Notes under the pieces: model-generated
What the model was told of the DNA's origin: nothing
What the model saw: only the letters and a program-made list of their open reading frames with translations
The model's database searches: none
DNA from: Desulfosudis oleivorans
GTDB taxonomy: Bacteria > Desulfobacterota > Desulfobacteria > Desulfobacterales > SURF-7
Direction of reading: 5' to 3'
DNA length: 64,000 bases
Assembly (NCBI GenBank): GCA_020723325.1
Contig: DYJD01000001.1
Location: forward strand, 1-64,000
Position numbers and translations under genes: made by a program
In this document: positions 5,583 to 20,301 of the stretch, in pieces
Position numbering within the stretch: the first letter of the stretch is position 1
How the letters are laid out: every line of letters begins with the position of its first letter

Positions 5583-6791
5583 ATGAAAAAGATCACCAGA
5601 AGACGATTTTTGTGCCTGGGGGCAGCCGCCTTCTGCTGTTCGGCTGTACCGGCCCAAGCCTTTTGGCCGTTCGACAAACGCGGTGAGGGGCCGAGTGGAA
5701 GCGCGGATGTAACCGGGATCGTATTTAAGGGCGACGGACCCAAAACCCTGCCCAAATGGCATCATGAGGCTGCTGCCTACACCAAGATGTTTGACCGCAA
5801 GGTGGTTTGCGGTATCTGTCCCCATAAATGCGTACTGGCACCGGGAGATCGGAGCCTATGTCGTTCCCGGGTCAATCTAGACGGCGTGCTGTACAGCCTT
5901 TCCTATGGAAATCCATGCTCCATCAATGTTGACCCCATTGAGAAAAAACCCTTGTTCCATTTCCGGCCGCGCACCACGGCCTTTTCCATTGCCGCGGCCG
6001 GCTGCAATTTCCGCTGCCTGAATTGCCAGAACTGGGAAATTTCCCAAGCCAAGCCCCATGAGGTGCGCACTACAGAGCTTTTGCCGGAAGAGGTGGTGGC
6101 TGCGGCCAAGCGGGCCAAGGCCGATTCCATAGCCTATACCTATTCGGAACCCATCACCTTTTATGAATATACCCTGGCAACCTCCCGAGCGGCAAAAGCT
6201 GCGGGACTCTACAATGTCTTGGTGTCGGCCGGCTATATCAATGAAGAACCGCTCATGGAACTCTGCCGCTTCATAGACGCAGCCAACATCAACCTAAAAT
6301 CCTTCAGCGACGAGATTTACCGCAAACTGAACGGCGGCAGACTTGAACCGGTGTTGAACACCTTCAAGACCCTGCATGCTCAAAAGGTCCATTTTGAGAT
6401 GACCAACCTGGTGGTCCCCGGCTATACGGATAATCCGGAAATGGTGAAACGCATGTGCGCCTGGATCATGGAAAACCTGGGACCGGATCATCCCCTGCAT
6501 TTCTTGCGTTTTTTCCCCAAGTACAAACTGGACCGTTTGCCGCCCACCCCGGTTTCCACCCTGACCCAATTTCGCGAGTTGGCCATGCAGGCCGGCATAC
6601 ACTACGTCTATGTGGGCAATGTGCCCAGCCATGATGGTGTGCACACCTATTGCCACAATTGCAGGAAAATGCTGATTCAGCGCCAGGGCTACTTGATTCC
6701 GGAATTCAATCTGGAAGGGAATCAGTGCAAATTCTGTCATGCGACGATTCCCGGGGTGTGGATAAGTACAGGGGCCGGGGCGGTGTCTTGA
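5583..6791 (+). CDS. amrS: AmmeMemoRadiSam system radical SAM protein with Tat signal
   Basis: This 402-residue radical SAM protein has the cluster motif CNFRCLNC (C141, C145, C148). An N-terminal CGICPHKC with a further Cys at 93, and a C-terminal pair of CxxC motifs (CHNC and CKFC), are typical of the AmmeMemoRadiSam member. The N-terminus TRRRFLCLG followed by a hydrophobic stretch and AQA is a twin-arginine signal with a cleavage site, implying export of a folded Fe-S protein. The ATG at 5583 follows GGGAGACGGCC. It sits 66 bases after the membrane protein gene with a repeat in the gap. Substrate unknown; the family was defined by gene neighbourhood and domain analysis. Confidence 0.92.
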   Translation: MKKITRRRFLCLGAAAFCCSAVPAQAFWPFDKRGEGPSGSADVTGIVFKGDGPKTLPKWHHEAAAYTKMFDRKVVCGICPHKCVLAPGDRSLCRSRVNLDGVLYSLSYGNPCSINVDPIEKKPLFHFRPRTTAFSIAAAGCNFRCLNCQNWEISQAKPHEVRTTELLPEEVVAAAKRAKADSIAYTYSEPITFYEYTLATSRAAKAAGLYNVLVSAGYINEEPLMELCRFIDAANINLKSFSDEIYRKLNGGRLEPVLNTFKTLHAQKVHFEMTNLVVPGYTDNPEMVKRMCAWIMENLGPDHPLHFLRFFPKYKLDRLPPTPVSTLTQFRELAMQAGIHYVYVGNVPSHDGVHTYCHNCRKMLIQRQGYLIPEFNLEGNQCKFCHATIPGVWISTGAGAVS

Positions 6792-13839: not shown

Positions 13840-15762
13840 ATGGCGCCCAAGAGTAAAAACAGTACGACGAAAGCGGCGAACAGTTACCGGCATCCCACCG
13901 CATCCGCTCTGATGCGGCCGGAGGTGGGTACCCAGGCCCAGTTTCGCAAGCGGATGGAACCGGCCAAGTACCGGTACGATTCCTCCCTTGATCCCTCCCT
14001 GTCCTGGGACGAGGGTCAGGCCGGCCGTGAGGAGGGGGAGCGCTTGATCCGGGAAATCATGGAGGCCGATACCCTTGAGGGCGCCAAGGCCGCGGCTGCC
14101 AAACTGAAAGCCATGTCCGCGCCTTTTTTGAACTGGTCCGGCAAGGCCGAGCGGACCGAATTCGACGTGCCGACGTTGCCCCTCTTTATTCATGAGCGCC
14201 TGAGTACCCAGGCCATCATCGCGACCCTGGGCGGCCATAAAAAAGGCATGGAACAGCTCGAACTGTTTGCCGACCCGCGCCATTCCATCACCGACCAGGT
14301 GCTCAAGGCCTACGAACACCGGGACAAATGGGTCAACCGCATGATCCTGGGGGATTCCCTGGTGGTGATGAATTCCCTGTTGCATTACGAAGGCATGGGC
14401 GGCCAGGTGCAGATGATTTACATGGACCCGCCTTACGGCGTTAAATTCGGCTCCAATTTTCAGCCCTTTGTGCGCAAGCGGGATGTCAAGCACAACGACG
14501 ACGACCATATGACCTACGAGCCGGAGATGGTGCAGGCTTATCGGGATACGTGGGAGTTGGGGTTGCATTCTTATCTAACTTATATGCGGGATCGGTTGCG
14601 ACTATGTAAGGAATTACTGTCGCCGAGTGGAAGCATATTCGTGCAGATTAGTGATGAAAATCTACATCATTTTAAGGAGTTAATGGATGAAATTATTGGA
14701 AAAGATAACTTTGCGGGTTTGATCAGTTTTCAAAAAACAGGTGGGATAGAGGGGAAGTTGTTGCCACCAGCAGTGGATTATTTACTTTGGTATGGGCGAA
14801 ATAAAGACCAGATGAAGTATCGTCAGCTTTTTATAAATAGGAGCATTGGTGATACATCGCTTGATAGATATGACATGCTATTGCTTAAAAATAAAAGCAG
14901 CCGAAGACTATCGAAGGAAGAAATAAGCACTGGGATAATCCCAGAAGGAGCAAGACGGTATCAGTTGGCTCCACTTTACTCAGAGGGGGCTTCATTAAAG
15001 CTATCTGAATTTACATACGAGGGGAAAAAGTATAAACCAAGAGCAGATACACATTGGAAGACAACATTGGAAGGACTACAACGCCTCGCTGATTTGAATC
15101 GAATAGAGGTTATGGGATCCGTCCTAAGGTACAGGAGATTTATAGATGATTTCCCAGTGATACCAATAAATGATAGATGGGAGTCTACACAAACTGGAAC
15201 TCAGAGAATTTATGCTGTTCAAACTTCACCTACAGTAATTCAACGCTGCCTCCTAATGACCACCGACCCCGGCGATTTGGTCCTTGACCCCACTTGCGGC
15301 TCCGGCACCACGGCTTATGTGGCTGAACAATGGGGTCGTCGCTGGATCACCACCGACGTCAGCCGGGTGCCTTTGGCCTTGGCTCGTCAGCGGCTTTTGA
15401 CCGCCACTTTCGACTACTATGATTTGAAAGACGAAAAGGCCGGACCCTCCGGCGGATTCGTTTACAAGCGCAAGCAGAATAAAAAGGGCGAGGAAATCGG
15501 CGGGATCGTGCCCCACATCACCTTGAAGAGCATCGCCAACAACGAGCCGCCGGCCGAGGAAGAGCTGGTGGACCGGCCGGAAAAGACCAACAGCATCACC
15601 CGCGTGACCGGGCCGTTTGTGTTTGAAGCCACCATTCCCACGCCCATGGACTGGGAGGCGCCTGCGGAAAAAGGCGATTCCGGTCGCATCGCGGTCAAGG
15701 TCATCGACGACCGCGGTAATGAGCTGCTGGTGGTCAAGGATCTCAAGGAGGCGGTGCCATGA
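13840..15762 (+). CDS. Type III-like DNA methyltransferase (Mod), beta class, shortened C-terminus
   Basis: This SAM-dependent adenine or cytosine-N4 methylase belongs to a restriction-modification cassette. The catalytic DPPYG is at residues 196-200 and the SAM-binding DPTCGSG at 483-489, the motif order of beta-class (type III Mod) enzymes. The segment between them, where the target-recognition domain lies, is strikingly AT-rich from about 14550 to 15245, while both flanks are GC-rich. The C-terminal part after ITLKSIANN looks much shorter than in relatives I know, with the usual IAVKVIDDRGNELLVVK end retained. The ATG at 13840 follows GGATGGA. Its stop overlaps the start of the ATPase gene (ATGA). 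Confidence 0.88.
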   Translation: MAPKSKNSTTKAANSYRHPTASALMRPEVGTQAQFRKRMEPAKYRYDSSLDPSLSWDEGQAGREEGERLIREIMEADTLEGAKAAAAKLKAMSAPFLNWSGKAERTEFDVPTLPLFIHERLSTQAIIATLGGHKKGMEQLELFADPRHSITDQVLKAYEHRDKWVNRMILGDSLVVMNSLLHYEGMGGQVQMIYMDPPYGVKFGSNFQPFVRKRDVKHNDDDHMTYEPEMVQAYRDTWELGLHSYLTYMRDRLRLCKELLSPSGSIFVQISDENLHHFKELMDEIIGKDNFAGLISFQKTGGIEGKLLPPAVDYLLWYGRNKDQMKYRQLFINRSIGDTSLDRYDMLLLKNKSSRRLSKEEISTGIIPEGARRYQLAPLYSEGASLKLSEFTYEGKKYKPRADTHWKTTLEGLQRLADLNRIEVMGSVLRYRRFIDDFPVIPINDRWESTQTGTQRIYAVQTSPTVIQRCLLMTTDPGDLVLDPTCGSGTTAYVAEQWGRRWITTDVSRVPLALARQRLLTATFDYYDLKDEKAGPSGGFVYKRKQNKKGEEIGGIVPHITLKSIANNEPPAEEELVDRPEKTNSITRVTGPFVFEATIPTPMDWEAPAEKGDSGRIAVKVIDDRGNELLVVKDLKEAVP

Positions 15763-17408
15763 TTCGTTCGGTATTGATCCGCCGGTTTAAACGCTTCCGG
15801 GAACTCCGCTTCGAGTTGAACGGCCGTCATGTGGTGCTGGCCGGACCCAACAATATGGGCAAGACCACCATTCTGCAGGCCATTGCCGCCTGGTCCCTGG
15901 CCTTTGCGCGCTGGAGGGGACTGAACGATTTCCAGCGTCGCGGCGGATACTATACCAAGGCGCCCATTGCCAGACAGGCGTTTTCCGCCGTGCCCCTGAG
16001 GCGTTTTGATCTGATGTGGGCCGAGCGGGATTATCGCGGCAACCTGGAAATCGAGATCGCCTCCACGGAAGGCTGGTCCGTCAACATGGAGCTGATCGCC
16101 GACAGCACCGAACAGATTTTCGTGCGTCCGAGTCGCAATACCGATCCGGGAATGTTGCGCGATGTGGGATTGGAGTCGGTATTTGTGCCGGCCATGAGTG
16201 GCTTGAGCAAGGAGGAGCCCTTGTATGCCCGGCCGGAAACCGTGGCTGATCTGTTGGGGCAGGCCAAACCCGGAGATGTGCTGCGCAATCTTCTGTATCA
16301 GACCCATCTGTCCCAAACCGCCTGGGAGTCCCTGACCGAAGCGATCCAACGCTTGTTCGGATATGGTCTGCTGCCGCCGGATGCCTCCGGCGCCTATATC
16401 ATTGCCGAATATCAGGCCGGCAAGGAAGGAACCCGCTTCGATATTTCCAGCGCCGGCAGCGGTTTTCAGCAAGTGCTCATGCTGCTGACTTTTTTGAATA
16501 TCCGTCCGGCAACGGTTTTGCTGCTGGATGAACCGGACGCTCATTTGCATGTCATTCTGCAGGATTCCATCTACAGCGAATTGCGCAAGGTGGCGGAAAG
16601 GCAACAGTCGCAATTGGTCATCGCCACGCACTCGGAGGTGATCATCAATTCCGTCGAACCCCGGGAACTTTGGGTCATCATGCAGTCGGCCCGTCCCATG
16701 GCGGAAAGCAGCGAAAAAAGCCGATTGATCACTTCCCTGCGGGTGCTTTCCAATACGGATATCATGCTGGCCATGGAGGCCGAGGGTGTTTTATATGTCG
16801 AAGGATACACGGATCTCGAAATCCTGCGGGCTTGGGCGGAGATCTTGGGACATGGCGCTTCCGCGCTGCTAAAAGGCGTTTTCTGGAAGCCGACGGTTTG
16901 GGAGCCGCGCCTGGGATCGGACGGCATCCGGGCCAGGGATCATTATGAAGCCCTGCAATTGGTTCGAAAGGATTTGCCCGGTCTGGTGCTGGTGGACGGG
17001 GACGCCAAACCGGAGCTTCAGTCCACGGAGATCACCGGCAAGGGCTTGCAGCGCCTGCGCTGGCGGCGATATGAAATCGAGAACTATCTGGTACATCCTG
17101 AAGCTATTTTTCGTTTTGTGGCCCAAAAAGTCGGGGTTGAGGCTGCCGGACCTCATATCGAGGATATAAAGCGCCATTTCCAGGAAACATATCCGCCGGT
17201 CTTTTTAAAAGATCCCCTGGCCGATATCCCCTTTTTGAAGAACACCAAGGCGCGCACCCAATTATTACCGCCGGCATTGGACGCCGCCGGGTTGCCGGGA
17301 TTTCCCTATACACGTTATCATGAAATCGCGGCGGTCATGAAACCGGAAGAGATTCATCCGGAGGTTGCTGAAAAATTGGATCAACTGATGGAGGCATTCG
17401 GGCGATGA
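15759..17408 (+). CDS. AAA ATPase with TOPRIM-like C-terminus (OLD-like) in the restriction cassette
   Basis: This 549-residue protein begins with an ABC/SMC-type P-loop (GPNNMGKT, residues 29-36). The signature SAGSGFQQ, Walker B LLLDEPDAH (D257, E258) and a switch histidine in ATHSE (H291) follow. Beyond residue 340 it has VEGYTDLEIL (E348) and LVDGDAKPE (D413, D415), the acidic pattern of a TOPRIM nuclease or ligase fold, then RRYEIENYLV. This architecture is that of OLD-family anti-phage ATPases. It overlaps Mod upstream and Res downstream by ATGA junctions, so all three are translationally coupled. It appears intact. Its role in restriction or as a separate defence is unknown. Confidence 0.85.
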   Translation: MIRSVLIRRFKRFRELRFELNGRHVVLAGPNNMGKTTILQAIAAWSLAFARWRGLNDFQRRGGYYTKAPIARQAFSAVPLRRFDLMWAERDYRGNLEIEIASTEGWSVNMELIADSTEQIFVRPSRNTDPGMLRDVGLESVFVPAMSGLSKEEPLYARPETVADLLGQAKPGDVLRNLLYQTHLSQTAWESLTEAIQRLFGYGLLPPDASGAYIIAEYQAGKEGTRFDISSAGSGFQQVLMLLTFLNIRPATVLLLDEPDAHLHVILQDSIYSELRKVAERQQSQLVIATHSEVIINSVEPRELWVIMQSARPMAESSEKSRLITSLRVLSNTDIMLAMEAEGVLYVEGYTDLEILRAWAEILGHGASALLKGVFWKPTVWEPRLGSDGIRARDHYEALQLVRKDLPGLVLVDGDAKPELQSTEITGKGLQRLRWRRYEIENYLVHPEAIFRFVAQKVGVEAAGPHIEDIKRHFQETYPPVFLKDPLADIPFLKNTKARTQLLPPALDAAGLPGFPYTRYHEIAAVMKPEEIHPEVAEKLDQLMEAFGR

Positions 17409-20301
17409 CCGGCTTTGAAGTTCAAGATCCCATACTCAATTCACCCTTTGAGGAACCTTCGGCCTACTGGCTGATTGAGGAGGGGAAACAACCGGAAAAG
17501 CTTCCCGGCCGACGTCCGGCCCGGTATTTCTACCGTCCGCCCGGTCCTGCAACCGAAGGCGGGCGAATGGGGACGGCCATTGAGCTGAAACTGGTGAATC
17601 GCACAAAATGGCCACCGGTACGGGGAAAACCACGGTGATGGCCATGGTGGCCGCCTGGTCGATTTTGAATAAAGTCAACAACCGCAGCGATGGGCGCTTT
17701 AGCGATGCCGTGGTGGTGGTATGCCCGAATGTAACCATTCGCGGGCGGCTGCGGGAGCTGGACCCCAACGAGGGCGAAGCCAGCGTTTATCGCACCCGCG
17801 ATCTTATACCGCCGCATCTGATGCCGACCCTGACCCAAGGGCGGGTGATGGTGACCAATTGGCACATTTTCGAGCGTCAAACCATTCAAGTGGGCGGAAC
17901 TCCGGCGCGGGTCAGCAAAGTCGGCGTGCCCTTACGAACCACCGAAACCATTACCATCGGCCCCAAAACCACTACCGCGCGCGGTACGCGTTATTTGACC
18001 GAATCCGTTCTGCAGCGTCAGATCGACCTTGGTTTGGTAAGGATCGTCAGTGAGGAGCGTGATAAAAAGAACGGTTTGAGGAAAGTGAAAGTCGAAGCTT
18101 TTCGATATGTGGAAAGCGATACCAAATGGCTTGAACGGGTGCTAGGAAAGGAGATCGGAGCCAAACAAAATCTTATCATAATGAACGATGAGGCCCATCA
18201 TGCCTACCGCATCAAGGCCCAGGAGATAGAAGAGCAGCAGGGTCTGTTTGATGACGCGGAAGAGTTGGAGGAGGAGGCGGAATTCGCGCGGGAAGCCACG
18301 GTTTGGGTGGAAGGGCTGGATCGCATCCATCGCTTGCGGAATGTCAATTTCTGCGTCGATTTATCCGCCACGCCTTTTTATCTGGCGGCCTCGGGCAACG
18401 AGGCCAATAGGCCGTTTCCATGGGTGGTCAGTGAGTTCGGCTTGACGGACGCCATTGAATCCGGCCTGACGAAAATACCGCAATTGGCGGTGCGGGATAC
18501 CAGCGGCGGGGAGATACCCGGTTTTTTCAATATCTGGCAGTGGATTATTCCCAAATTGACACCTGCGGAACGTGGCGGGCGCAAAGGCACACCCAAGCCG
18601 GAGTCTGTTTTAAAATACGCGCACCATCCCATTGCCATGCTGGGAGGGCTATGGGAGGAAACACTGGCGGAATGGCAAAAGGAAACCAATGATCCACGGC
18701 CGCCGGTTTTTATTTTGGTATGCAAGAACACCCAGATCGCCAAGGTCGTTTTTGACTGGCTTGCCTTTGATCAACGGCCGGCGGGAATTCCGCCGGCCAA
18801 TCTGACCGGTTTTCGAAATACGGAAAAGGAGACCCATACCATCCGGGTGGACACCAAGGTGATTCAAGAAACGGATTCGCCGGGCGCCAAAGCGGACGAA
18901 ATGCTGTGGATGCGCTTTACACTGGATACGGTGGGAAAGCTGCAATGGCCCGCGGATCGCCAGGGAAGACCGCTTTTCCCGGAGAATTTCGAGCTGCTTG
19001 CCCAAAAGCTGGGCCGGCCTCTGCATCCGCCCGGCCGGGATGTGCGTTGCATCGTCAGCGTCGGTATGCTGACGGAAGGGTGGGACTGCAATACGGTAAA
19101 GTACATTATCGGTTTGCGACCCTTCATGTCTCAACTACTCTGTGAACAAGTGGTCGGTCGCGGACTTCGCCGGGCAAGTTATCAACCGGACCCGGAGACC
19201 GGTAAATTCTCCGAGGAAGTCGCCAAAATTTTCGGGGTCCCTTTTGAGGTGATACCGTTCAAGGCCAATACCGGCGGCGGACCACGGCCGGAAACAAAAC
19301 GATATCATGTCCATGCCATCCCGGCAAAAGAAGCCTGCCGCATTATTTTCCCGCGGGTGGAAGGTTATATCCAGACCATTCAAAGCCGGGTGACCATTGA
19401 TTGGGAAAAGGAGTCTGTCTTGACATTGGACCCCATCAATATCCCGCCCCAGGTTCAGATGAAGGCGTCCTTACCTGCCAATTCTGGCCGGCCCACTCTT
19501 TCCGGACCTGGAAGACTTGAGGATATATCCCTGAACCCGTTTCGAGAGAAAAGAAGGAAGCAGGAACTGATTTTTGAATTGGCTGCGACCTTGACGCGTG
19601 AATATATCGGACAAGGAAAAAGCGAGCTTTCGCCCCATGTGCTTTTTCCCCAGTTGGTCCATATCGTCGGACGGTATCTGGAAGAAAAAGTAAAAGCCGA
19701 CCCTCCGGCGGATATGATGGATGTTTTCCTATCACCCTACTATGGCTGGGTCATAGAAAATTTAATTCATGCCATTCGACCGGATACTGCCCAAGGCGAG
19801 GCTCCTGAAGTGCCGAAATATGAGCGGCATCGCAAGCCCGGATCAACCGAAGAAGTCGATTTCTGGACCAGTCGCCCGGTACGTGAAGTCGTCAACAGTC
19901 ATTTGAATTATATTGTCGCGGATACGAAAAAATGGGAGCAGTCGGCTGCCTTTTTCATTGATACCCATCCATGGACGGCTGCATTTGTAAAGAATTCAGG
20001 ACTCGGTTTTGCCATCCCGTATTTCCATAACGGCCAGTCTCATGACTATGTTCCTGATTTTATTATTCGCCTTAAATCGAATTCCGCAATAGACCAATAC
20101 CTAATATTGGAAACCAAAGGATATGATCCCCTGGCAGATGTCAAAAAAGCGGCTGCCGAGCGATGGGTAAAAGCGGTGAATGCAGATGGGCAGTATGGGC
20201 ACTGGCAGTATGCAATAGTGCGTAGTCCGGAAAAAGTAGTGGAAGCCATCGGGAAGGCGTTTCAACAACCAGAAATCGCATCATCCAGACTCCGCCATTA
20301 G
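17405..20301 (+). pseudogene. Restriction subunit (type III Res-like helicase-nuclease), broken by internal deletion and frameshift
   Basis: The first ~65 codons from ATG 17405 (DPILNSPFEEPSAYWLIEEG, then GRRPARYFYRPPG and IELKLVNR) are the N-terminus of a BPTD_3080-type restriction protein. At about 17604 the frame is lost. From 17608 another frame continues with the Walker A region MATGTGKTTV, then NDEAHHAY (helicase DEAH, 194-197 of this frame), SATP (253-256), VGRGLRR (516-522) and a PD-ExK nuclease site D817, E835, K837. Relatives carry roughly a hundred residues between LVNR and the Walker motif, absent here. So a deletion also shifted the frame. The 897-residue fragment could start at 17608 but would lack the N-terminal domain; inactivity is likely, not proven. 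Confidence 0.8.

What the first reader, a model, noticed from the sequence alone, without database searches (positions are those of the whole stretch)
17405..17640. Restriction subunit of the type III-like cassette carries an internal deletion and frameshift
The N-terminal frame (17405 to about 17604) and the helicase frame (from about 17608) belong to one protein, but relatives that I know have about a hundred residues between LVNR and the Walker motif. Here they are joined at AATCGCACAAAATGGCC and the frame changes. This suggests the endonuclease was lost while its methylase and ATPase remain intact, an orphan-methylase state.
Basis: partly seen in the sequence, partly recalled or inferred. 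Interest (0 to 1): 0.7.

Follow-up and report, generated by a model that had tools for sequence, protein, structure and literature searches.

The report
Recently decayed type III-like restriction cassette
A DNA-defence gene set in this bacterium has been disabled by two separate deletions, one in the cutting enzyme (as suspected) and one, missed before, in its DNA-marking partner, so it is an ordinary but unusually clear case of a decaying restriction system.

Summary
The restriction (Res) gene of a type III-like cassette (BPTD_3080 family) lacks 262 nt relative to its closest relative, L023. One deletion of 3n+1 bases explains both the 88 missing residues and the frame change. The piece is present in one stretch in 41 of 48 related loci and was not found elsewhere in this genome. 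It carries the putative Q-motif region of the ATPase, so restriction is very probably dead, although the nuclease motif downstream is intact.

The interpretation needs correcting: the methylase is not intact. It has its own in-frame 744-nt deletion between short imperfect direct repeats. That removed 248 conserved C-terminal residues, kept in one stretch in 34 of 48 loci. In EcoP15I the Mod C-terminal domain contacts Res (PMC4490356, passages). Catalytic core and target-recognition region remain. The third gene, an OLD-type ATPase with TOPRIM-like motifs, is intact.

Retained parts show no extra stops or frameshifts and no excess change at invariant residues, so decay looks recent. Eleven testable window genes show no gaps, but reads could not be checked.

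Verdict: ordinary decay of a known kind; a modification-only state is possible, untested.

The parts
13840..15762 (+). mod: type III-like DNA methyltransferase, 640 aa, catalytic core (N6_N4_Mtase) and TRD present, C-terminal block deleted in frame
   Evidence: PF01555 E 2.5e-32; PADLOC MTase_III PDLC03632 E 1.4e-124 matching only positions 80-586 of 983; 17 of 21 relatives 905-1164 aa
14750..15210 (+). approximate target-recognition region of mod: no blastn match to L023, low G+C (0.41 against 0.56 for the rest of the gene)
   Evidence: this region is lower in G+C than the rest in 16 of 16 relatives too
15658..15676 (+). mod deletion junction: the single remaining copy of an imperfect ~19-nt direct repeat that flanks the 744-nt block in L023
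   Evidence: two blastn pieces overlap here; repeat 12 of 20 identical, reached by 2.3% of random pairs at the same distance
15759..17408 (+). intact OLD-type ABC ATPase gene with TOPRIM-like motifs (VEGYTD, DGD), overlapping mod by 4 nt and the Res start by 4 nt
   Evidence: full length against L023, L029, L031, L033, L055, L062; 3 of 173 invariant residues changed; TOPRIM motif assignment recalled
17405..17638 (+). res, N-terminal fragment (77 aa, stop at 17636-17638)
   Evidence: NF046055 model positions 2-49, E 4.6e-10; sequence
17596..17611 (+). res deletion junction: 262 nt missing relative to L023, frame changes
   Evidence: no direct repeat beyond chance
17608..20301 (+). res, helicase-nuclease fragment (897 aa) beginning at the Walker A methionine
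   Evidence: NF046055 positions 159-967/970, 872 bits
20053..20118 (+). PD-(D/E)XK-type nuclease motif (PDFII...ETKG), intact and conserved
   Evidence: alignment with L022, L024, L029, L062; P971, D972, E990, K992 of L022 invariant in 18 sequences; motif name recalled

Best explanation
This is a type III-like restriction-modification cassette (mod - OLD-type ATPase - res) that has recently lost its restriction function. Shown by comparison: two separate deletions, 262 nt out of frame in res and 744 nt in frame in mod. Inferred: the res product, whether re-started at 17608 or made as a frameshift fusion, lacks the putative Q-motif helices and the strand leading into the Walker A loop, so it cannot use ATP properly and restriction is off. 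Inferred: Mod keeps its catalytic core and target recognition but has lost most of its C-terminal domain, the part that contacts Res in EcoP15I, so no Mod-Res complex would form; Mod may still methylate alone. The OLD-type ATPase gene between them is intact and may act on its own. The most economical cause is loss of selection on restriction; the genome has 25 PF04851 (ResIII) matches at E <= 0.001 and 4 PF01555 matches, this mod included.
For: Res: one family model split over two frames, positions 50-158 unmatched. Segment kept in 41 of 48 related loci in one stretch; in the other 7 Res is matched only from residue 196 or later. 17 residues invariant in 18 sequences lie inside it, Gln109 among them. 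PF04851 matches L024 from model position 4 but the window only from 30. In EcoP15I motif Q Gln14 contacts the adenine (PMC4490356, passages). Mod: 744-nt gap between ~19-nt imperfect repeats; block kept in one stretch in 34 of 48 loci and in all 26 of 29 phylum loci not cut short, one with a frame change; 49 columns invariant in 16 relatives are gapped in the window; whole-model best structural match EcoP15I Mod, E 5.6e-12 but TM only 0.22/0.31. Neither lost piece was found elsewhere in the genome while 5 of 5 control genomes ring, one of them the query's own source. Recent: 3 of 170, 3 of 173 and 3 of 188 invariant residues changed in the kept parts of mod, ATPase and res, within the range of relatives; dN/dS 0.05 for res versus L023, the same as L022 versus L023; without selection a nonsense mutation in res would be expected, at 95%, by 0.028 substitutions per site. 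Not a generally poor assembly: 11 of 20 other ORFs tested match a model over its near-whole length without a gap; the other 9 had no full-length model.
Against: No reads were available, so an assembly or strain-mixture artefact is not excluded; two deletions in one 6.5-kb cassette is a little suspicious. No sister strain could be compared: none of the 95 other genomes is of the same genus. The retained ORFs are so well kept that continued selection on a shorter protein is not excluded; on the other hand two of the window's changes at invariant Res residues are adjacent (T498K, H499Y). The equivalence of the lost block with the EcoP15I Mod CTD is by position and a low-confidence model (mean pLDDT 56), not by sequence. 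The Res model was too poor to use (mean pLDDT 61, no PDB match at E <= 0.001).
Confidence: 0.8

Rival explanations
1. Orphan methylase under selection: restriction was lost and Mod, trimmed of its Res-docking domain, is kept as a solitary epigenetic methyltransferase.
For: The Mod deletion is in frame and keeps the 4-nt overlap with the next gene; core and TRD kept, 3 of 170 invariant residues changed; conserved solitary methyltransferases without a restriction partner are well known (PMC12707154, passages).
Against: An in-frame deletion has a 1 in 3 chance by luck; conservation of the core is equally expected if the deletion is recent; no data on methylation.
Confidence: 0.25
2. Assembly artefact: the two gaps are collapses or chimeric joins and the organism carries intact genes.
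For: Reads not seen; two gaps close together; the genome is in 113 contigs.
Against: 11 of 11 testable other window genes have no gap; the missing pieces were not found in the other contigs; the mod gap sits at a short repeat, a usual biological deletion site; no long repeat in the region.
Confidence: 0.12
3. A shorter but working variant: the res fragments act as two proteins, or as one made by a -1 slip at the A-run, with a short Mod.
For: The second ORF starts with ATG at 17608 and overlaps the first; a TGATG overlap lies at 17636-17640; the nuclease motif is intact.
Against: Every product lacks the segment with 17 invariant residues; none of the 33 relatives and none of the 41 loci has this form; no evident ribosome-binding site before 17608 (read by eye, not scored).
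Confidence: 0.05

Closest known systems
BPTD_3080 family restriction endonuclease (NCBIfam NF046055) with its upstream type III-like Mod
   Same: Both res fragments match the model in order; gene order mod then res; window Mod 50-66% identical to most close relatives over the matched part
   Different: Model positions 50-158 unmatched and the frame changed; Mod lacks 248 residues
EcoP15I (type III R-M, Mod2Res1)
   Same: Mod with TRD inside the MTase domain; SF2 helicase-like Res with a C-terminal nuclease; EcoP15I Mod is a sequence hit of a relative's Mod and the best PDB match of the Mod model
   Different: A relative's Res finds no EcoP15I Res by sequence search of the PDB at E <= 1; Mod of most relatives is 905 aa or more against 644; the window copy lacks most of the C-terminal block
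Solitary (orphan) methyltransferases without a restriction partner
   Same: Methyltransferase core kept, restriction gene broken
   Different: Here Mod itself is truncated; methylation not shown
OLD-type ATPase/TOPRIM backup effectors in BREX loci and PARIS (PMC12839542, passages)
   Same: An OLD-type ATPase gene with TOPRIM-like motifs sits inside a restriction-like operon
   Different: Here it lies between type III-like mod and res; function untested

Membership tests
BPTD_3080 restriction endonuclease (NF046055) | Whole-protein score over the curated cut-off | tested here: met
   second ORF alone 872 bits against 800
BPTD_3080 restriction endonuclease (NF046055) | One continuous frame over the model | tested here: not met
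   two frames, positions 50-158 unmatched
BPTD_3080 restriction endonuclease (NF046055) | C-terminal PD-(D/E)XK-type motif | tested here: met
   PDFII...ETKG conserved
Functional type III R-M system | Complete helicase motor in Res (Q motif, Walker A) | tested here: not met
   Walker A kept; the region before it, with the putative Q motif, deleted
Functional type III R-M system | Mod with catalytic core, TRD and C-terminal domain | tested here: not met
   core and TRD present, C-terminal block lost
Functional type III R-M system | Restriction of unmodified DNA | not testable with these tools
   needs experiment
Orphan methyltransferase | Methyltransferase catalytic core intact | tested here: met
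   PF01555 E 2.5e-32; 3 of 170 invariant residues changed
Orphan methyltransferase | No functional cognate restriction enzyme | tested here: inconclusive
   Res broken by sequence; activity not assayed
Orphan methyltransferase | Methylates the genome | not testable with these tools
   needs methylome data

The most novel reading that the evidence does not exclude
The two deletions are not random decay but a coupled step: loss of the Res-docking domain of Mod and of the Res motor turned the cassette into a modification-only unit whose intact OLD-type ATPase/TOPRIM-like protein, embedded between them, is now the only effector.
Probability: 0.07. Interest if true: 0.6.

Novelty: new member of a known kind. 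Interest (0 to 1): 0.22.

Why it matters
It is a clean snapshot of how a type III-like system dies: both partners hit, the rest not yet decayed. It also points to a large conserved C-terminal Mod block in this family that no Pfam model matched at E <= 1 and that could be tested as the Res-binding part. Taken alone it is ordinary.

Tried and rejected
Ribosomal frameshift or re-start as a rescue: possible on paper, but every product lacks the deleted segment. TRD swap as the cause of the decay: dropped, because this region has lower G+C than the rest of the gene in 16 of 16 relatives as well. Relocation of the lost pieces: none found in the genome; the first tries had no control, the repeats with 5 control genomes did. 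Repeat-mediated deletion in res: no repeat beyond chance, P 0.51. Structure of Res: model too poor. Papers: no paper in the held library contains 'BPTD_3080'; six further searches gave background; of these papers I saw passages of three (PMC4490356, PMC12707154, PMC12839542) and listings of the rest. A first invariant-column count was spoiled by two rows with internal stops and was redone. The Trp stop seen in two Res genes was looked for in 4 more phylum loci and 26 viral loci and not found again; one of the 4, L099, has a stop elsewhere.

Full report
What is there. Three genes on the + strand: a type III-like methyltransferase (mod, 13840-15762), an OLD-type ABC ATPase gene with TOPRIM-like motifs (15759-17408) and a restriction gene of the BPTD_3080 family (res, from 17405), joined by 4-nt overlaps. 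The res gene is in two frames: 17405-17638 and 17608-20301. Both match NCBIfam NF046055 in order, at model positions 2-49 and 159-967 of 970.

The res deletion. In 33 of 33 relatives read the helicase frame continues 148-283 codons upstream of the Walker methionine; here the open frame is only 8 codons longer than the ORF. Against L022 and L023, the closest relatives at 77% and 80%, the window joins the codons after LVN directly to those before MATG. The gap is 262 nt against L023: 3x87+1, so the same event changes the frame. Of 48 genome loci (L022-L069), 41 keep the segment in one stretch. In the other 7 Res is matched only from residue 196 or later: in L036, L049, L066, L067 and L068 the match starts within 135 bases of the edge of the held DNA; L056 and L058 have 2.8 and about 6 kb upstream and may be truncated copies. 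In the viral collection the tblastn piece spans the segment in 25 of 26 loci checked; L123 shows a frame change there. In the plasmid collection 38 records match and 26 cover at least 80% of the query; I did not read those genes.

What that segment is. It holds 17 residues invariant in 18 sequences, among them Gln109. The PF04851 helicase model matches L024 from model position 4, but the window only from 30. In EcoP15I the Q-motif glutamine contacts the adenine of the nucleotide (PMC4490356, passages). That the lost piece holds the Q motif is inferred from position and sequence; the structure model of Res was too poor to add anything. The C-terminal nuclease motif is intact, so 'the endonuclease was lost' is true of function, not of that domain.

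The window Mod has 640 aa (stop-to-stop frame 647). In one search, 17 of 21 relatives have stop-to-stop frames of 905-1164 aa; L031 and L039 begin at a contig edge, L032 and L063 are interrupted. PADLOC's best model matches only positions 80-586 of 983. Against L024, residues 562-810 are missing; against L023, 744 nt = 248 codons, in frame. The two blastn pieces overlap at 15658-15676, an imperfect repeat of L023's two flanks: 12 of 20 identical, reached by 2.3% of random pairs at the same distance. Of the 48 loci, 34 keep the block in one stretch; L037 has it in two pieces, L032 lacks its front, L061 shows it in part, and 11 show none, of which I did not separate contig ends from absence. A phylum-wide search found a Mod match in 36 of 395 genomes, the window's own among them, at 38 places; 30 became loci. 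Of the 29 loci other than the window, 26 are not cut short and all 26 keep the block, L165 with a frame change; 8 places without a locus were not checked.

Role of the lost block. AlphaFold2 on L023's Mod is poor overall (mean pLDDT 56). In residues 621-870, 19 of 25 ten-residue blocks have a mean pLDDT of 55 or more, with helices and strands, so the block probably folds. The stretch before it (520-637) is of low confidence, but it includes part of the methyltransferase domain, so the model does not fix the domain border. Foldseek's best match is EcoP15I Mod, with low TM-scores of 0.22 and 0.31. In EcoP15I the C-terminal domain of one Mod contacts Res. Taking the lost block as the docking domain is an inference.

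Real or artefact. Neither lost piece was found elsewhere in the genome, while each rings in 5 of 5 control genomes, one of which (G068) is the source of the query. Of 20 other window ORFs tested, 11 match a family model over nearly its whole length without a gap (one of them, GlcD, below its cut-off), 5 had only partial or broad models and 4 had none at E <= 1e-10. No long repeat was found in the region. Reads were not available, and none of the 95 other genomes is of the same genus.

How recent. Outside the deletions, the window departs at 3 of 170 (mod), 3 of 173 (ATPase) and 3 of 188 (res second ORF) residues invariant in relatives. The ranges for relatives are 1-8, 1-29 and 0-17. Two of the three in res are adjacent (T498K, H499Y). 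An earlier count with 15 close relatives gave 10 of 297, range 0-24 for the others, and 15 of 306 without the sister L022, the second highest of 15; L023, L026 and L037 were left out there. Synonymous sites are near saturation (dS about 2). dN/dS against L023 is 0.05 for res, 0.09 for the ATPase part and 0.10 for the kept part of mod; L022 against L023 gives 0.05 for both res and the ATPase part. So the ATPase is slightly less constrained on this side. Under no selection, absence of a nonsense change in res bounds the age at about 0.028 substitutions per site. The bound fails if the shortened protein is still selected.

Decay is not rare in the family. Among the 41 loci with the res segment, 8 show at least one interruption in mod or res: L026 and L037 (a stop in res), L048, L050, L051, L052 (frame changes in res), L032 (part of mod missing), L063 (frame change in mod). 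L050 and L051 look like the same lesion, and sequencing error is not excluded.

Conclusion. A type III-like cassette, recently decayed, with both partners hit. Restriction is very probably off; whether Mod still methylates is open.

Noticed in passing
L026 and L037, Res codon 240 (L022/L024 numbering), locus coordinates near 6253: Two Res genes from distant bacteria (Syntrophaceae, Phycisphaerae), otherwise open, each carry one stop (TGA, TAG) at the same conserved Trp codon (NWHVF). Both keep mod, L037 with an insertion. Not seen again in 4 phylum loci and 26 viral loci; may be coincidence or a recurrent off-switch.
   Followed up: partly
window 15759-17408; L022, L023, L029, L031, L033, L055, L062: An OLD-type ABC ATPase with TOPRIM-like motifs (best PADLOC hits NsnB, AriA, AriAB) is embedded in this cassette in 7 of 75 loci; it overlaps mod by 4 nt in 5 of the 6 where mod is in the locus. 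A possible restriction-linked backup effector.
   Followed up: partly
L024 mod residues about 560-840; L023 1918-2661: A conserved C-terminal Mod block of about 250 residues with no Pfam match at E <= 1, still detectable in relatives about 30% identical there.
   Followed up: partly
L027 and L030 mod: About 1 kb extra DNA between the two halves of mod near the target-recognition region, in the same frame on both sides.
   Followed up: no
L056, L058, L072: Res matched only in its later part despite several kb of upstream DNA: possible remnants.
   Followed up: no
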